DNA of 64,000 nt from Candidatus Avelusimicrobium intestinale (lineage in GTDB: Bacteria > Elusimicrobiota > Elusimicrobia > Elusimicrobiales > Elusimicrobiaceae), in contig CACWYV010000001.1 in assembly GCA_902765225.1 (NCBI GenBank), positions 1 to 64,000 on the forward strand, read 5' to 3'. Of this stretch, positions 34,269 through 63,579 are shown piece after piece. A program made the position numbers and the translations under genes. Numbering within the stretch: position 1 is the first letter of the stretch; every line of letters starts with the position of its first letter. Under the pieces are notes generated by a model that made no database searches, had not been told where the DNA came from, and saw nothing but the letters and a program-made list of their open reading frames with translations.

Positions 34269-34336
34269 TAGGTCCAAGGGCCTACCTGTGGTTGGGTCTT
34301 TTGGCCCTTGTGAAAGCGTTGGTATTTCACTATACT
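34269..34336 (+). promoter_or_regulatory. Double-dyad operator and promoter of the first ChaN-like gene
   Basis: Box A TAGGTCCAAGGGCCTA (34269-34284) and box B GGGTCTTTTGGCCC (34294-34307), centres 24 bp apart. Box B touches a weak -35 TTGTGA (34308-34313); a 17-bp spacer and -10 TATACT (34331-34336) follow. The ATG is 8 bases after the -10 with no ribosome-binding site. The same arrangement is found at 37158-37225, 38811-38881 and (minus strand) 63490-63579. A dyad abutting a poor -35 suggests an activator site; this is inference. Confidence 0.8.
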
Positions 34337-34344
34337 AATTGTGT

Positions 34345-35895
34345 ATGAAAAAATTGTTATTTGGGGTGATTTTTCTCCTGGCAGTCTGCCCGACCCGGGC
34401 CCATACGTGGCCCGATGTCCTGCTACGGCAGGTCGTCTCAAGCGCTGCAACCGTCCAACCCGCTGACCGGGGAACCGTTTTACGGGCTTTATCACAGGTG
34501 TCCAACCGGTCCTTGCGCCAGATTAGTTGGAAGCAGTTCCTACAGGAAAATGCCCAAATTCTAAACGCCAATCAAACCCAAAGCGACAGGCGCTCCTTGA
34601 TGCTTCATGATTTAAACGATACGAATTGCAACTTGTTAAACGGCTTACTCGCCCACCCAACCCATAACGCCCGTTTGAATTACGCCCAAGAAACAAAGGG
34701 AATGAAATATATTTATCTGGGGGAAAATCACGCAACAAGAACTATCCCGGCCGAAGTACAACGGCTATTGGTCTCCTTGCGCCAAGCCAACCCGAACGCC
34801 CGTATTTTACTCGCCATGGAATTTGCCGTACGGTTAGACGAAAGAGAAGTACCCCTCCTTTTTGCCACCCCCCATACACTAACGGATTTGGAAACCGGCA
34901 AACAGACAGCCCCTTTTGCCTTTATAGCCAATGAATTTTTAGACACGGCACGCGTCGCCTTGAAACAACAAATAGATATCTTGGCACTGGAAGATAATTT
35001 AAAATATACTTCTGCGACCCCTCATATAAAAGTAGGGGATACCCTGGTAAACATCCCTGCGGACAATCCCCAAATAACCGACCTCATTAAACGCTACCAA
35101 CAAGTGAATGCTTCCTATACAGACCTCTCGGCTTTGAAGGATTTTTTGTCACGCACGGAATGGGGAATTATCCAGCGCAACCGCCAATGGGCCGACTACA
35201 TCCGGGCCGTCAGCCCGTTCTACGACATCATTATATCCTACGTAGGCAGAGGCCATCTGGAAGATGAATTTGTTACTCCTTCTTTTCCCAACTTGGTAGG
35301 GGAACCCCGTTACATCCGGTTTGATTTTTGGACGGATGAACAGTTATCCGATACGACGATAGATGTTTATTTGCAACATAATAAAATCCAGCAAGAGCAA
35401 TCCTCTTCCGCAGCCACTGTGCCGGACTTACCGGTAGATTTCATGCAGAATTTACCCGGTGATACTTCCCGGTCCATCACCGGATATGTGGTATGCCGGG
35501 GCCGGACCCCCCAAGAATGGTCAGCCCAAGAGAAAGTTGCTCTGAACAATCTTTACCAAAAATATTTTCAAACGGATGCTCCCATCCTGGACCAAACATA
35601 CATTCAAGTACACTTACCGGATGCAACGCCCGCCATATACCAGGAGAAACTTTCCACTTGGTTGGAGCAATTGCAATCCTTCCGGCAGGGGCTGTTACGC
35701 CTGGAAGACCCCGTTCAGCTCAACCGTTGCTACGCACTTTTACAAGAGATAGAACAAGCCCTGCTGCAAATTGTTGCCGATAAAGAACCGGCCGGGGGAA
35801 AAATAAAGGAATTAGAAAAAATGGCTACCGAAAAACACCAGATTTTAAAAGCCATCCGCCAAATTTTAGCGCAAAATGCTGCGCCCAAGGAGTAA
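34345..35895 (+). CDS. Secreted ChaN/Tiki-superfamily-like protein, paralogue 1
   Basis: 516 aa. Signal peptide (about 1-20, ends PTRA), then a conserved N-terminal element LRQISWKQFLQENAQI shared by all four paralogues. The core begins at about residue 115 with QETKGMKYIYLGENH (GExH), LLAMEFAVR, DILALED, then TEWGIIQRNRQWADYI and FYDIIISYVGRGHL. Glu and His of the GExH, the RNRQW segment and the late GxGHL resemble the ChaN haem-binding or Tiki/EreA hydrolase superfamily, which use these residues for metal or substrate. A helical module FRQGLLRLEDP...ILLQIV-like follows near residue 450. It forms an operon with the next gene (3-base gap). Activity unknown. Confidence 0.8.
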   Translation: MKKLLFGVIFLLAVCPTRAHTWPDVLLRQVVSSAATVQPADRGTVLRALSQVSNRSLRQISWKQFLQENAQILNANQTQSDRRSLMLHDLNDTNCNLLNGLLAHPTHNARLNYAQETKGMKYIYLGENHATRTIPAEVQRLLVSLRQANPNARILLAMEFAVRLDEREVPLLFATPHTLTDLETGKQTAPFAFIANEFLDTARVALKQQIDILALEDNLKYTSATPHIKVGDTLVNIPADNPQITDLIKRYQQVNASYTDLSALKDFLSRTEWGIIQRNRQWADYIRAVSPFYDIIISYVGRGHLEDEFVTPSFPNLVGEPRYIRFDFWTDEQLSDTTIDVYLQHNKIQQEQSSSAATVPDLPVDFMQNLPGDTSRSITGYVVCRGRTPQEWSAQEKVALNNLYQKYFQTDAPILDQTYIQVHLPDATPAIYQEKLSTWLEQLQSFRQGLLRLEDPVQLNRCYALLQEIEQALLQIVADKEPAGGKIKELEKMATEKHQILKAIRQILAQNAAPKE

Positions 35896-35898
35896 TCT

Positions 35899-37179
35899 AT
35901 GAAAAAATTATTTACGTTATTTATTTTGACGACTATTTTTTCCCCAGCAAAAGCCGTTTCTATTCAAGAAACGGTACAACAACAGGTGCGGCATATGAAT
36001 TTGGTAAATGAACAACCAGAACTCGCTCCCTGGCAAATTCAGGCCGTACAAGCCTTGCAGCAAGAACTAGACAAACCGCTCCGTACGATCTCTTGGGAAC
36101 AATTCCAACAAGAAAATACCCAACTGCAACAAGAAGAAAAAATTAGAATGGAAAATCTCTCGGGTTTTAGAGAAGCACTTTTTGAGGAAGACCGAGAATT
36201 ATTTACTAAAGAATGTGCCCCTTATCAATGGCACGAAGGCCGCCCGGATTATACCCGCGAAACAAAGGGAATCAAATATATTTATGTAGGAGAGACCCAT
36301 AACAAGACGACCTTCATACAGGAAATGATATCCCTTTTGGAACAAATCCGCAAAGCCAATCCGCAGGCTCGCATTTTAGTAGCAACTGAATTTGCCGTAA
36401 GCGGACGAGGAAAACAACCTCTTGCCTTTGCCAAATCAATCCGCGAGCATGATGATCTTCCCATTTATATTGCATCCGGACATATAAAATGGTTCGTTAC
36501 CGCCGGAAATCTAGACATTGATGTGTTAGCCTTGGACGATTATTTTAACGATTACACGAATGGACAAGTAAAAATGGGCAACGCGTTGGTTACCATTCCG
36601 CCCGATAATCCGCAAATATCCTCTATTTTGCAAGAATACGTGGGTTCCAATTATGCAGAACATAGGGCTATGTATTACTTTTTGGCCCGATCGGACTGGG
36701 GAATACAACAACGCAACACCCAGTGGGTACGCTATATCAATGCTCTTGAATCCTTTTATGATATCATTATTGTCTATGCCGGAAACGGACATCTTTCTTC
36801 AGGAGAGGCTAGACTTGGGTTGCCTGACTTAATAAAAAGTGATTCGTTTGTAAATTTTATGTTTTACACCGATGAACAAATACCGTCAGAACTTGCTCAT
36901 TCCTACAAACAAAGCTCTAACGTACAAAAAAAACAGGGGACATTGTTACAGCTGTCTTTAATGTCCGATGCACAACGTGCTTATTTGTCTAGCCTACCTC
37001 GCCCAACTTATGATAAGGGAACGGCTTTTTTCAAAGTGCACACCCCTAACTTGGCAACCCAAAAAAATTTACAATTGTTGAATAAATTAAGCCAACAGTA
37101 TCTTCATGCAAACTTTAAACCTAGGCAGGGAAAAAGATTTGATATTTTCCTACCGGATAGGTCTAAAGACCTATTTTGA
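35899..37179 (+). CDS. Secreted ChaN/Tiki-superfamily-like protein, paralogue 2
   Basis: 426 aa, the shortest paralogue: it lacks the C-terminal helical module. Signal peptide ends SPAKA. KPLRTISWEQFQQENTQL, ETKGIKYIYVGETH (GExH, about residue 131), LVATEFAVSG, DVLALDDY, SDWGIQQRNTQWVRYI and FYDIIIVYAGNGHL are in the same order as in paralogue 1. Translation should start from AAGGAG 8 bases before the ATG, and transcription comes from the promoter of paralogue 1. Its codons look more AT-rich than its neighbours, which suggests separate age or source. The last codons (RSKDLF) overlap box A of the next promoter. Confidence 0.8.
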   Translation: MKKLFTLFILTTIFSPAKAVSIQETVQQQVRHMNLVNEQPELAPWQIQAVQALQQELDKPLRTISWEQFQQENTQLQQEEKIRMENLSGFREALFEEDRELFTKECAPYQWHEGRPDYTRETKGIKYIYVGETHNKTTFIQEMISLLEQIRKANPQARILVATEFAVSGRGKQPLAFAKSIREHDDLPIYIASGHIKWFVTAGNLDIDVLALDDYFNDYTNGQVKMGNALVTIPPDNPQISSILQEYVGSNYAEHRAMYYFLARSDWGIQQRNTQWVRYINALESFYDIIIVYAGNGHLSSGEARLGLPDLIKSDSFVNFMFYTDEQIPSELAHSYKQSSNVQKKQGTLLQLSLMSDAQRAYLSSLPRPTYDKGTAFFKVHTPNLATQKNLQLLNKLSQQYLHANFKPRQGKRFDIFLPDRSKDLF

Positions 37180-37225
37180 TTTAGGTCTTTTGGCTCTGGT
37201 ATAAACAAGGCATATCCCCCATACT
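37158..37225 (+). promoter_or_regulatory. Double-dyad operator and promoter of paralogue 3
   Basis: Box A TAGGTCTAAAGACCTA (37158-37173, perfect dyad) lies inside the last codons of the upstream gene. Box B AGGTCTTTTGGCTC (37183-37196, degenerate) is centred 24 bp further on and touches a poor -35 TGGTAT (37197-37202); a 17-bp spacer and -10 CATACT (37220-37225) follow. The ATG at 37232 is 6 bases after the -10. Confidence 0.75.
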
Positions 37226-37231
37226 ATGGGT

Positions 37232-38791
37232 ATGAAAAAATTATTACTCTTCTTAACCACCTTTTGTATGGTATGTTCGGCAGGCAACGTCTTTGCCAGC
37301 CCCATTGCGGCCGGATTGGAAACCCAGTTAAACAAACAACTGCCGGCCCCGTTATCTCCCCGGCAACAACAAATCGTCGGAGCGTTGACTCAAGCAACTT
37401 CCGCTAAACCGCGAGAGATTTCTTGGAAAATGTTTGAACAAGAATCCACTCAGTTACACACGCAGTGGCAAAACCAGCGTGAACAATCCCAAGCATTTAA
37501 CAAAGCCCTGTACCAACAGGACCCCGCTTTGTATAAACGGTTGCTCAATCCTACTACAGCAGCCGGATGGCAACAAATAGAATATGCCCCGGAACTATTG
37601 AATGCTACACATATTTTTATTGGAGAACGACACGACACAACGCTTATCCCCGCACAAGTAGAGAATATCTTGGCCGCTGTCCGCCAAATCAATCCGCTTG
37701 CTCGTATTCTGCTAGCCGTGGAATTTATACGCCCGGAACATCCCGGGCAAGCCCCCATTCTCTTTGCCGATGGGGATGCCTCCCGTTTCAGCCAACCCTA
37801 TACCAACCTGGTTAGCAAAGCCCAATCCTTAAATATGGATTTACTGGCGTTAGACAATATGAGTAATTACTCCGGCAAGCCAGTATGCCGTATGGGTAAT
37901 GTAGCGGTAACGTATGACTTGCAATCCCCCCTGGTGCAACGTATTATCAAACAATACGGTCCGCAATGGGACCAAACCGCCGCTCCGTTGAAAAAGAAAC
38001 GCCAGCAACTGGCGCAACAGGTTGACCAACTTCAAAAGACCTTGCCGCTACTGGAAAAAAACCCTACCCAATTGGCTCAAACAGCCAAGAAATTGGGGAA
38101 GACGCCCAAACAATTTTTGGAAACCTCCCGCGAAGCGCTAAAACAAGCCCGCCAACAGATAACCAATTTGGACAAACAAATAAAGACGTTCCGGGAAGAG
38201 TCCATTTATTATTATGTCACTGACCAATTGGCCCGTTCGGACTGGGGCGTAAATCAACGCAACGCCCAATGGGCACAGTATATTCAAGCCGTCCAACCGT
38301 TTTATGATATTGTCATTGTTTACGCAGGTAGCGGCCACTTGACTGCCACCAGTTTCCAACCGTTGACGAAACTTCTGCAAGCCAACGCTCAAAAAGCCGT
38401 TTTGTTTACTTTTTACACCAACGAACATTTACCGGCTGACTTGGAACAAGCGTATCGGCAAAGCGCCCAAATACTGCGGCAGGAAAATCTTACGCTCAAA
38501 AAAGAGAGTTCTTTGCCGGAAGATGTGGCCCAAGCCGTAACCAGACACCCCGACTTACTCCAGCTGGACACCAGCCGTTCGTTCTATATTAAAAAAATTC
38601 ATCATCCGTGGAAATCCCCGTGGATTACCCCCCAAGAAGAAACCCTTTTGGAGGCGTTTCAAACCCAATACCCGCAGGGATTCACGGCGCTTAAACCTTC
38701 CGACGATATCCCGGAATTTATCACCCTGGATATCTTTTTATCAAAGGATGCGCCGGCTGCGACTTCTACCCAATCATCGCCCCGCCAATAA
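37232..38791 (+). CDS. Secreted ChaN/Tiki-superfamily-like protein, paralogue 3
   Basis: 519 aa. ATG 37232 is preferred over the in-frame ATG at 37226 because it matches the start spacing of the other leaderless paralogue genes and opens the signal peptide (ends GNVFA). Shared elements: AKPREISWKMFEQESTQL, ATHIFIGERH (GExH, about residue 130), LLAVEFIRP, DLLALDNM, SDWGVNQRNAQWAQYI and FYDIVIVYAGSGHL. Between DLLALDNM and SDWG there is an insertion of about 85 residues that is strongly helical and Lys/Gln/Leu-rich (KKRQQLAQQVDQLQKTL; REALKQARQQITNLDKQIK), likely a coiled-coil hairpin. The C-terminus ends in a Pro/Ser/Thr-rich tail. Own promoter of the regulon type. Confidence 0.8.
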   Translation: MKKLLLFLTTFCMVCSAGNVFASPIAAGLETQLNKQLPAPLSPRQQQIVGALTQATSAKPREISWKMFEQESTQLHTQWQNQREQSQAFNKALYQQDPALYKRLLNPTTAAGWQQIEYAPELLNATHIFIGERHDTTLIPAQVENILAAVRQINPLARILLAVEFIRPEHPGQAPILFADGDASRFSQPYTNLVSKAQSLNMDLLALDNMSNYSGKPVCRMGNVAVTYDLQSPLVQRIIKQYGPQWDQTAAPLKKKRQQLAQQVDQLQKTLPLLEKNPTQLAQTAKKLGKTPKQFLETSREALKQARQQITNLDKQIKTFREESIYYYVTDQLARSDWGVNQRNAQWAQYIQAVQPFYDIVIVYAGSGHLTATSFQPLTKLLQANAQKAVLFTFYTNEHLPADLEQAYRQSAQILRQENLTLKKESSLPEDVAQAVTRHPDLLQLDTSRSFYIKKIHHPWKSPWITPQEETLLEAFQTQYPQGFTALKPSDDIPEFITLDIFLSKDAPAATSTQSSPRQ

Positions 38792-38810
38792 TGCACGTTT
38801 TTACAACAAC

Positions 38811-38881
38811 AGGTAGGTCCAAGGACCTACCTGTTGTTGGGTCTTTTGACCCTTGTAGGGGAAAACATATTTCCCTATACT
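38811..38881 (+). promoter_or_regulatory. Double-dyad operator and promoter of paralogue 4
   Basis: Box A (core TAGGTCCAAGGACCTA, 38814-38829) extends to a perfect 22-bp palindrome at 38811-38832. Box B GGGTCTTTTGACCC (38839-38852) is also a perfect dyad, centred 24 bp later. The -35 TTGTAG (38853-38858) abuts box B; a 17-bp spacer and -10 TATACT (38876-38881) follow. The ATG is 6 bases after the -10. Confidence 0.85.
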
Positions 38882-38887
38882 AATAGT

Positions 38888-41032
38888 ATGAGAAAATTTC
38901 TTTTTTTATTGATTTTTGCCGCATTGGTCTCCCCGGCTCAAGCCAACCGCATCCACAACGCCCTGCAACAACAAGTGGTCAAAAACCGTTTGCCGGCTGA
39001 TTCTCCGGGCCACCTGGTCCAGCAATTGATCCGCCGGGCCTTGGGCCAAGCAGTAAACAGGCCGTTGCGTACCCTGACTTGGGAACAATTCCAACAGGAA
39101 AACGCAGAAATCAGCCGCTACATAACTACTAATTCCGACAAAGAGGCCGACTTGGTAAACGATTTGTACAACCTGGATTGCAATTTATTACTCAAAACAA
39201 TTGATTCTAAAGAAAAGAAAACCGGCCATCCGGATTACGCCAAGGAAACAAAGGGCGTCAAATATATTTACCTGGGGGAACACCACTATACCCATGCGAT
39301 TCCAACCGAAGTGGAATATTTTTTAGCCACCTTACGCGAAGCCAACCCGACCGCCCGGATTTTACTGGCCACGGAATTTGCTATACGGGAAAAACAAGAA
39401 AATTCCCCGCTCCTCTTTGCCGACCCGGACATCCCTGCCAAGTTGGAAACCGGGGATTTCCAACTTCCCTTTTATTGGAACATATCTTCGGACTTGTTTT
39501 CCACCGCCATCAAACTGAAGATGGATATCCTGGCCTTGGACGATATGTTAACGTACCCCGGGCCGGAAATTCGCATCAAATTGGGGAATGCTTTAGTGAC
39601 GGCCGACCCGAATTCCCCCCAAGTAACTCAAATACTCCAACAATATCACCGCATCATTCCCGATGAGACCGTGCGTGAAATATTATCTGATTTTTTAGCC
39701 CGCACGGATTGGGGGATTGAACAACGCAACCGGCAATGGGCACTATACTTACAAACAGTCAGCCCATTTTATGACATAATCGTCACCTATGCCGGGGAAG
39801 GTCATCTATCCACTCCTTTTGATTCTCTGCCTTATCTGGTGGGAGATAGCCACTACGTTCACTTTTATTTTTCCACAGAAGAACGATTACCCGATAATTT
39901 AGAAACTATTTGCCAACAATGTAGTCTCGTACAACAAGAGCAAGACGGCAAAGTCACCCCTTCCCCGGTTTTCTTTAAAGAACAAGTAGAATTTTTAGAG
40001 AAATGCCTTTCTTCCCAACCGGCTGCCGCTCCCTATCGGACGTTCTATTCTAAAAATAGAAACCCGGACTATGATGAAAGTGATTTGCAAGAACTCAACC
40101 GCCTTTCCCAATACTATTTTCACACCGATTGGCAGACGGCTACGACTCCCAACACCTATTTTGCAGTCTCCTTGCCCGGTAATAAAGCCTCCTTCCCGGA
40201 AACACGGAAAGACTGGGAGGAGTCTTTGGAGCAATTCCGAAGGCGGACAGAGGTTATGCATGACTTTCATTTAAAAGAACAATGCAAAGAAATTTTACAG
40301 GCCATCACCCAACAATTTGCCCAAATTATCAAAAACAAAGAATTATCTCCCACCGAGAAGGCCGCCCGGTTGGAGTCGCTGACGGAAGAATTTGAAAGGT
40401 CTCTGCATCAAATGAATTATATTTTTGCAACGGACAACTGGAACAATGAATTGGGCACCTACCGGGACCGGATACAGGATATGAAAAACCCGGAATTACG
40501 CAAACAGTGCGAAGAAATCTTACAGACATTAAAACAGCAAGTCGCCCAAATTATCCAAAACGAGCAACTGTCTTTTGCGGAAAAAGAGGACCGTTTCCGG
40601 GCCCTTGAAACCGCTACGCGTAAGCCCCGCCATCAACTAAAAGAATTCCTGTCACAAGACGAATGGGAACGCCACGTGCAATCATGGGAAGATTCCCAGA
40701 AACAACAAGTAGAAGCCATGAGGCAAGCCTCCCAGGAATGGATAGACAACGTGGAACAGTGGAATCATATTTTGGCCGAATTCCGTAGCTACCTGCCAGA
40801 CATACAAAACCCGGACGCACGGAAAGAATATAAAGAACTTCTGGAGTCCCTGGAACAGCGACTGTCACAAATTATCCAAAACGGTCCCGGGGATCTTCAA
40901 ACGTATAGGAATCAATTTTTTGAATTCTTGAAAGCAGCGGATAAGGCCAGCGAAAAAATGTTGCTCATATTAAAAAATGACGGTGCCATCCACCGGGCCC
41001 TACAGAAAAAAACAACTTCGCTTGGACAATAA
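38888..41032 (+). CDS. Secreted ChaN/Tiki-superfamily-like protein, paralogue 4, with repeated helical modules
   Basis: 714 aa, the longest paralogue. Signal peptide ends SPAQA. RPLRTLTWEQFQQENAEI, ETKGVKYIYLGEHH (GExH), LLATEFAIR, DILALDDM, TDWGIEQRNRQWALYL and FYDIIVTYAGEGHL follow in the family order. After about residue 440 come three copies of a helical module of the form (Y/F)R..(L/M)..(D/N)P.....C.EILQ...Q..QII.N (DNA about 40230-40380, 40456-40600 and 40780-40900), alternating with Trp/Gln-rich linkers; paralogue 1 has one copy. ATG 38888 was chosen by the promoter position and signal peptide; the frame runs back into the operator. A terminator follows. Confidence 0.82.
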   Translation: MRKFLFLLIFAALVSPAQANRIHNALQQQVVKNRLPADSPGHLVQQLIRRALGQAVNRPLRTLTWEQFQQENAEISRYITTNSDKEADLVNDLYNLDCNLLLKTIDSKEKKTGHPDYAKETKGVKYIYLGEHHYTHAIPTEVEYFLATLREANPTARILLATEFAIREKQENSPLLFADPDIPAKLETGDFQLPFYWNISSDLFSTAIKLKMDILALDDMLTYPGPEIRIKLGNALVTADPNSPQVTQILQQYHRIIPDETVREILSDFLARTDWGIEQRNRQWALYLQTVSPFYDIIVTYAGEGHLSTPFDSLPYLVGDSHYVHFYFSTEERLPDNLETICQQCSLVQQEQDGKVTPSPVFFKEQVEFLEKCLSSQPAAAPYRTFYSKNRNPDYDESDLQELNRLSQYYFHTDWQTATTPNTYFAVSLPGNKASFPETRKDWEESLEQFRRRTEVMHDFHLKEQCKEILQAITQQFAQIIKNKELSPTEKAARLESLTEEFERSLHQMNYIFATDNWNNELGTYRDRIQDMKNPELRKQCEEILQTLKQQVAQIIQNEQLSFAEKEDRFRALETATRKPRHQLKEFLSQDEWERHVQSWEDSQKQQVEAMRQASQEWIDNVEQWNHILAEFRSYLPDIQNPDARKEYKELLESLEQRLSQIIQNGPGDLQTYRNQFFEFLKAADKASEKMLLILKNDGAIHRALQKKTTSLGQ

Positions 41033-62857: not shown

Positions 62858-63466
62858 TTATTTGAACAAGTACGGGGTATATATCTTGAAATAGTCAATA
62901 ACTTGATGCATACCGGGAACTTTCTCGTTGGCCAACGCCGCCTGCACAATGCTGCGTCCGCCGGCAAAGCTCAATTCACGCACGAGGGCCATTTTTACGG
63001 GAAGTACAAATTTCATGGCACCGCCGGCTTCCATGGCTGCGTACGCTTCGCGCACGGCCACATCCAACTGGGTTCCCTCATACAATTTAAAAAACACATT
63101 GGCATCAAATTGCTCCGGATGCACCACGCTGTAATTGACGTAACGCATAAACGGAGTTTCCCCCATTTGGTTACGGCTATTAAGAAGTTCAAACAACAGC
63201 GCCCGGTCTTTTTCCCGCACGCGCGCGGACAAGGTTTGCAACGTATATACATCTTGCACATAGTGGAACACATTGTTACCAAACCGGTCCGTTGCTTTTA
63301 ACAAACTCTCATCTTTCAAAAAAGCAATATCCAACGTGCGGCCTTCCTGCACAATTTTTAAGAAGGCTTCTTCTTTGGCTTTTTGCGGCATATCTTCCGC
63401 AATCGTCTCTGCCTGTGCCGATACAAACCCGGCTAAAATAAATAAAGTAAAAAATATCTTTTTCAT
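62858..63466 (-). CDS. Secreted hypothetical protein, possible ankyrin-like helices, member of the dyad regulon
   Basis: 202 aa. Signal peptide MKKIFFTLFILAGFVSAQAE. I do not recognise the family. The middle has two segments that resemble degenerate ankyrin repeats (DRFGNNVFHYVQD and NQMGETPFMRYVN, about residues 62-115), and the rest is helical (LFELL, FKLYEGTQLDVAVREAYAAME). GGGGG lies 4 bases before the ATG. The promoter upstream has the same dyad boxes and spacing as the ChaN-like genes 22 kb away, so a shared role is likely. Last residues are YTPYLFK. Confidence 0.75.
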   Translation of the reverse strand: MKKIFFTLFILAGFVSAQAETIAEDMPQKAKEEAFLKIVQEGRTLDIAFLKDESLLKATDRFGNNVFHYVQDVYTLQTLSARVREKDRALLFELLNSRNQMGETPFMRYVNYSVVHPEQFDANVFFKLYEGTQLDVAVREAYAAMEAGGAMKFVLPVKMALVRELSFAGGRSIVQAALANEKVPGMHQVIDYFKIYTPYLFK

Positions 63467-63489
63467 ATGTCCCCCGCCTGCTTACCTAT

Positions 63490-63579
63490 ATCTTATGTTC
63501 TTTTGAGTGATTTTACGAGGGTCTTAAGACCTACGTTTAGAGGTTTTTGGACCTAGGTAAAAATAGGTCTAAAGACCTA
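63490..63579 (-). promoter_or_regulatory. Triple-dyad operator and promoter of the secreted hypothetical gene
   Basis: On the minus strand: box TAGGTCTTTAGACCTA (63564-63579, perfect dyad), degenerate box TAGGTCCAAAAACCTC (63540-63555), box GGTCTTAAGACC inside 63519-63532 abutting a poor -35 TCGTAA (63513-63518), 17-bp spacer, and -10 TAAGAT (63490-63495). Box-to-promoter spacing is the same as at 34269-34336. Centres are 24 and 22 bp apart. Confidence 0.8.

What the first reader, a model, noticed from the sequence alone, without database searches (positions are those of the whole stretch)
34269..38881. Shared double-dyad operator with fixed 24-bp spacing in front of three paralogue promoters
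Seen: box A (TAGGTC-N4-GACCTA type) and box B (GGGTC-N4-GACCC type) with centres exactly 24 bp apart at 34276.5/34300.5, 37165.5/37189.5 and 38821.5/38845.5. Box B directly abuts a poor -35 in all three, with a 17-bp spacer to the -10. Sequence between boxes and around the spacer is not conserved, so this is not just recent duplication. Inference: a dimeric regulator binds two sites on about the same DNA face and activates at the -35. No regulator gene is in the window.
Basis: partly seen in the sequence, partly recalled or inferred. Interest (0 to 1): 0.85.

Follow-up and report, generated by a model that had tools for sequence, protein, structure and literature searches.

The report
Phylum-wide operator for exported-protein genes
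The paired palindromes in front of these genes are real and are three of about 35 copies of one on/off switch that this gut bacterium (Elusimicrobiota) and its relatives place before genes for exported, mostly uncharacterised proteins, probably worked by one VraR/LiaR-like response regulator.

Summary
Both dyads, their 24-bp centre spacing and the 17-bp-spaced promoter are at the stated coordinates; 6 pair matches in the window against 0.04 expected. They are not local: consensus GGYCAAAAGACCTAG-N6-CTAGGTCTTTTGRCCCTTGT-N(~20)-TATAAT precedes about 35 genes in this 1.41-Mb Elusimicrobiota genome; exact operator-plus-minus-35 matches number 22 against 0 control. 33 of 36 downstream ORFs carry signal peptides (background 63/213, p=1e-12). 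The switch occurs in all 61 genomes of genus and order searched and is almost confined to Elusimicrobiota (46 of 49 hits among about 85,000 species). In 45 independent sites a TATAAT box sits 17 bp behind the minus-35. Box spacing is mostly 24 bp, 22-25 overall. Best explanation: an activator of class II geometry. The genome has no CRP/FNR protein and two NarL-type response regulators. RR2, closest to VraR, is in 63 of 63 motif-positive genomes; RR1 is missing from seven of them. The box (TAGGTCTnnAGACCTA) resembles the LiaR/CesR box (TCAGHCTnnAGDCTGA). Regulator identity and start sites are inferred; no binding was tested. Corrections: 24 bp is 2.3 helical turns, not the same face; sites 1 and 3 are 93% identical; a fourth site lies at 63,490-63,577.

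The parts
34269..34284 (+). Box A of site 1 (distal dyad, TAGGTCCAAGGGCCTA)
34294..34307 (+). Box B of site 1 (GGGTCTTTTGGCCC), centre about -42.5 from inferred start
34308..34336 (+). Promoter 1: -35 TTGTGA, 17-bp spacer, -10 TATACT; ATG 8 nt later (near-leaderless)
34345..35895 (+). Paralogue 1, exported 516-aa protein, ChaN/EreA/TIKI-like fold
35899..37179 (+). Paralogue 2, exported, directly behind paralogue 1 with its own Shine-Dalgarno; no own box
37158..37173 (+). Box A of site 2 (TAGGTCTAAAGACCTA), inside the 3' end of paralogue 2
37183..37196 (+). Box B of site 2 (AGGTCTTTTGGCTC)
37197..37225 (+). Promoter 2: TGGTAT, 17 bp, CATACT; near-leaderless
37232..38791 (+). Paralogue 3, exported (start 37226 or 37232), weak Pfam ChaN match
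38814..38829 (+). Box A of site 3 (TAGGTCCAAGGACCTA)
38839..38852 (+). Box B of site 3 (GGGTCTTTTGACCC)
38853..38881 (+). Promoter 3: TTGTAG, 17 bp, TATACT; ATG at 38888 (near-leaderless)
38888..41032 (+). Paralogue 4, exported 714-aa protein
63520..63577 (-). Fourth window site: three dyads (centres about 63571.5, 63547.5, 63525.5; spacings 24 and 22)
63490..63518 (-). Promoter of the fourth site: TCGTAA, 17 bp, TAAGAT
62858..63466 (-). Exported 202-aa protein behind the fourth site

Best explanation
A double-dyad operator fused to a sigma-70-type promoter. A response regulator dimer binds box B (centre about -42.5), touching the -35 and helping RNA polymerase at promoters with poor -35 elements (class II geometry). 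A second dimer binds box A (about -66.5), possibly in contact with the first through the invariant inner half-sites (GACCTA-N8-TAGGTC). The switch controls about 35 genes for exported, mostly uncharacterised proteins in this genome, and the same system runs through the order and parts of its class. The most likely regulator is RR2 (G000:C4 15.4-16.1 kb), a VraR/LiaR-like NarL-family response regulator encoded behind a dCache sensor kinase and a receiver-kinase hybrid. Shown: motif, spacing, promoter register, target class, conservation. Inferred: start sites, activation, RR2 as the binder, cooperativity.
For: Genome-wide pair matches aligned with promoters; 22 exact operator/-35 matches against 0 control in own genome, consistently above control across the genus; 61/61 relatives with matches; 46/49 exact hits among about 85,000 species are labelled Elusimicrobiota; TATAAT at a fixed 17-bp spacer in 45 independent sites; boxes kept at a similar distance from the start codon in about 13 of 20 loci with divergent homologues of paralogue 1; 33/36 targets with signal peptide against 63/213. 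Regulator: no PF00027 protein; two GerE proteins only; RR2 in 63/63 motif-positive genomes and the motif in 0 of 110 RR2-negative genomes; RR1 lacking in motif-positive G038, G042, G052, G110, G119, G139, G143, and RR2 the only GerE protein in G042 and G052; RR2 closest to VraR in the PDB (1e-38) with similar recognition helix; box matches the CesR core GHCTnnAGDC (PMC4447274).
Against: Co-occurrence follows the tree, so any gene inherited by this clade would correlate. 26 RR2-positive genomes (mostly genera g22, g24, g27 and families f5, f8) show no strong match. RR2's own operon carries no box. Only two regulator families were surveyed in this genome. No transcript or binding data.
Confidence: 0.6

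Rival explanations
1. Same operator and regulon, but another protein binds: RR1 (the second NarL-type response regulator, G000:C1 361.4-362.0 kb, with a HisKA_3 kinase) or a transcription factor of a family not searched here.
For: RR1 is present throughout the genus and family; only GerE and cNMP_binding families were searched in the own genome; the link of RR2 to the motif is correlative.
Against: RR1 orthologues are missing from at least seven motif-positive genomes, including G143 with 17 sites; its recognition helix (SLNTVHVHRNNI) differs from the LiaR/VraR type that fits the box.
Confidence: 0.3
2. The operator represses rather than activates: a dimer on box B blocks polymerase at the -35, and box A adds cooperativity.
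For: Box B abuts the -35, where bound protein could also occlude polymerase.
Against: The -35 elements are poor (TTGTNN, TGGTAT, TCGTAA) and the CTTG next to the box is conserved with it; no box lies in the spacer or over the -10; the position about -42.5 is typical for activators of this family (own knowledge).
Confidence: 0.12
3. Not an operator: a dispersed hairpin, intrinsic terminator or uptake-sequence repeat.
For: The arms could form a hairpin (AAAAGACCTAG-N6-CTAGGTCTTTT); site 3 box A extends to 17-nt perfect arms.
Against: Sites sit in register with -35/-10 and start codons in front of genes, site 1 between divergent genes; a few dozen copies per genome; spacing and sequence kept while flanks diverge.
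Confidence: 0.02

Closest known systems
LiaR/CesR/VraR regulons (NarL-family response regulators of Gram-positive cell-envelope stress)
   Same: 16-bp inverted repeat with the core GHCTnnAGDC (PMC4447274); A/T-rich centre; candidate regulator RR2 closest to VraR in the PDB; targets act at the cell envelope or outside
   Different: Different phylum and outer half-site bases (TAGG/CCTA); two dyads 24 bp apart fused to the -35; about 35 targets; HisKA-type kinase plus hybrid instead of LiaS/LiaF; no autoregulation seen
CRP/FNR class II promoters
   Same: 5-4-5 dyad centred near -41.5/-42.5 next to the -35
   Different: No cNMP-binding-domain protein found in this genome
ComA and LuxR-type promoters (own knowledge)
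   Same: NarL/LuxR-family dyads at the -35, ComA with N4 spacer and several boxes per promoter
   Different: Half-site sequence and spacing differ; no orthology tested
Sigma-54 control of the bacterial exterior (PMC3162934)
   Same: A single control layer over exterior functions
   Different: These are sigma-70-type promoters; the paper reports sigma-54 absent from Elusimicrobium minutum

Membership tests
LiaR/VraR-type response-regulator regulon | NarL-family response regulator with VraR/LiaR-like DNA-binding domain in the genome | tested here: met
   RR2: Response_reg + GerE; VraR best PDB match 1e-38; NCBIfam best MadR, 145 bits, below its cut-off of 300
LiaR/VraR-type response-regulator regulon | 16-bp inverted-repeat box with core GHCTnnAGDC | tested here: met
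   Site 2 box A TAGGTCTAAAGACCTA and others fit; several have C for T or an A/T-only centre (motif from PMC4447274)
LiaR/VraR-type response-regulator regulon | LiaFSR operon context with HisKA_3 kinase and LiaF | tested here: not met
   RR2 lies behind a dCache-HAMP-HisKA kinase and a REC-HisKA hybrid; so it is not filed as a LiaR orthologue
LiaR/VraR-type response-regulator regulon | The regulator binds the boxes | not testable with these tools
   Needs EMSA or footprinting
CRP/FNR class II regulon | CRP/FNR protein in the genome | tested here: not met
   PF00027: 0 matches, control genomes ring
Sigma-54 promoter | GG-N10-GC at -24/-12 | tested here: not met
   No such invariant spacing in the aligned sites; conserved TTG-N20-TATAAT instead
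Dispersed repeat or terminator | Positions independent of promoter register | tested here: not met
   Fixed 17-bp register to the -10

The most novel reading that the evidence does not exclude
One two-component phosphorelay (dCache sensor kinase, receiver-kinase hybrid, RR2) acts as the master switch for the rapidly evolving, mostly uncharacterised exported proteome of a large part of a bacterial class, using a double-dyad operator with invariant inner half-sites not described before.
Probability: 0.45. Interest if true: 0.75.

Novelty: new member of a known kind. Interest (0 to 1): 0.62.

Why it matters
It gives a sequence tag that lists in advance the co-regulated exported proteins of a poorly studied phylum: ankyrin-repeat proteins, metallopeptidase-like proteins, ChaN/TIKI-fold proteins and many families without a Pfam match. 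It also names a single regulator to test. Gut Elusimicrobiota have little known regulation, so a motif that predicts promoters and secreted targets across more than 60 genomes makes 'what controls their interface with the host or community' directly testable.

Tried and rejected
CRP/FNR as the regulator: the class II position fits, but no PF00027 protein is in the genome. Sigma-54 promoter: spacing does not fit. Terminator, hairpin repeat or uptake sequence: rejected by promoter register. Recent duplication as the sole reason for similarity: true for sites 1 and 3 (93%), but not for the genome-wide and cross-species set. Autoregulation: no box at either regulator gene. RR1 as the regulator: weakened by absence from motif-positive genomes. 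Paper searches found no report of this motif; the LiaR paper PMC4482077 was not held.

Full report
Observation. All three sites are as described. Box A and box B centres are 24 bp apart at 34276.5/34300.5, 37165.5/37189.5 and 38821.5/38845.5. Box B abuts a weak -35, and a 17-bp spacer leads to TATACT or CATACT. The pair pattern occurs 6 times in the window with at most one mismatch against 0.04 expected. Two of those matches reveal a fourth, three-dyad site on the minus strand (63,520-63,577), in front of a 202-aa exported protein. Sites 1 and 3 are 93% identical over 44 nt, so they are not independent of each other; site 2 is clearly more diverged (70%).

Genome-wide. The pair pattern gives 26 + 29 strand matches in the 1.41-Mb genome against 7 + 11 for the reversed control. 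Contexts show one consensus: GGYCAAAAGACCTAG-N6-CTAGGTCTTTTGRCCCTTGT followed by TATAAT. A sequence-only profile built from 17 sites finds about 35 promoter-type places. The shorter operator/-35 pattern TRGGYCNNNNGRCCCTTG has 22 exact matches and none for the reversed control. In 29 own promoters defined by box B, -35 and -10, the best box A lies at 24 bp in most, with a few each at 23 and 25 and one at 22. Caveat: those stretches were fetched because they matched the pair pattern or the profile, so the share at exactly 24 is biased upwards.

Targets. 33 of 36 downstream ORFs have a signal peptide by a simple rule (positive charge, hydrophobic core, small-residue cleavage site) against 63 of 213 other ORFs, p = 1e-12. 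The three exceptions are one ORF broken by a stop (C4:121 kb), one remnant that keeps only a signal peptide (C2:118 kb) and one site scored in the reverse orientation (C1:486 kb). Most targets have no Pfam match; the rest include ankyrin repeats, TPR/SpoIID, M20 peptidase and reprolysin-like domains. The window paralogues are 29-40% identical to the first. They have a weak ChaN match, and a model (pLDDT 70) whose best Foldseek matches include HopBA1, 2rad and Campylobacter ChaN, at E about 1e-3 to 1e-2: a ChaN/EreA/TIKI-like fold, moderately supported; that these three matches share a superfamily is own knowledge.

Conservation. All 61 genomes searched (own genome included) of the genus and order carry profile matches. 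In the phylum sample 63 of 199 do at E <= 1e-5: own family, sister family f2, and members of f5 and f7. An exact operator pattern over about 85,000 species hits 49 stretches, 46 labelled Elusimicrobiota. In 45 of those sites, chosen only by operator and CCCTTG, positions 21-26 behind TTG read T36 A36. A33. T33, i.e. a -10 at a 17-bp spacer. Box A's outer half-site GGYC is complete in only 20 of 45, while the inner half-sites are the invariant ones in the own genome. Loci with homologues of paralogue 1 in other species keep box B about 50 bp before the start codon in roughly 13 of 20 although flanks differ, many with the near-leaderless arrangement.

Regulator. The genome has no cNMP-binding-domain protein, which removes CRP/FNR. 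It has two GerE proteins. RR1 pairs with a HisKA_3 kinase. RR2 follows a dCache-HAMP-HisKA kinase and a REC-kinase hybrid, and precedes what look like Tad-pilus genes (unconfirmed: no Pfam match). RR2 orthologues are in all 63 motif-positive genomes, and none of the 110 RR2-negative genomes has the motif. RR1 is missing from G038, G042, G052, G110, G119, G139 and G143, which are motif-positive; its reported hits in G038 and G042 are the RR2 loci. RR2 is the only GerE protein in G042 and G052. RR2's best solved relative is VraR, with a similar recognition helix (IKTIKNHLNSAF against IKTVKTHVSNIL), kept almost unchanged from f1 to f2. The box agrees with the CesR/LiaR motif TCAGHCTnnAGDCTGA reported in PMC4447274. 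This favours RR2 but does not prove it: the correlation is phylogenetically confounded, 26 RR2-positive genomes show no strong match, and other transcription-factor families were not surveyed.

Mechanism. Box B at about -42.5 next to a poor -35 is class II activator geometry. The 24-bp distance is 2.3 helical turns, so the two dimers are not on the same face. The tolerated 22-25 bp and the invariant inner half-sites suggest contact across the N6-N8 centre, or that three strong half-sites suffice. All of this is inference.

Verdict. It works like a LiaR/VraR-type regulon; membership as a LiaR system is not claimed because the kinase context differs.

Noticed in passing
L114:1582-1652, L118:1577-1647, L169:6873-6943, L179:6743-6813, L190:3053-3123, L192:5645-5715: In sister-family genomes a 2dG-II riboswitch (RF03165, 74-84 bits) sits directly behind a box A/B promoter and, in L192, before an exported metallo-beta-lactamase-fold protein: two control layers on one gene.
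   Followed up: partly
window 62858-63577: Fourth copy of the operator in the window, with three dyads, in front of a 202-aa exported protein.
   Followed up: yes
L063:5355-6671 and L148:1405-2355: Two exported targets have weak receiver-domain-like C-terminal matches, odd for exported proteins.
   Followed up: no
L060 from 3664: Target ORF with signal peptide is interrupted by a stop after 56 codons, then open for 769 aa: pseudogene, frameshift or sequencing error.
   Followed up: no
L149 (C2 about 118.2 kb, minus strand): Intact operator and promoter in front of a remnant that encodes little more than a signal peptide.
   Followed up: partly
window 34331-34345, 37220-37232, 38876-38888: The ATG lies 6-8 nt behind the -10, so the three paralogue mRNAs are probably leaderless; other targets have a leader with Shine-Dalgarno.
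   Followed up: partly
L171, L178, L213: Three exact operator-pattern hits in records not labelled Elusimicrobiota: chance, contamination or transfer.
   Followed up: no
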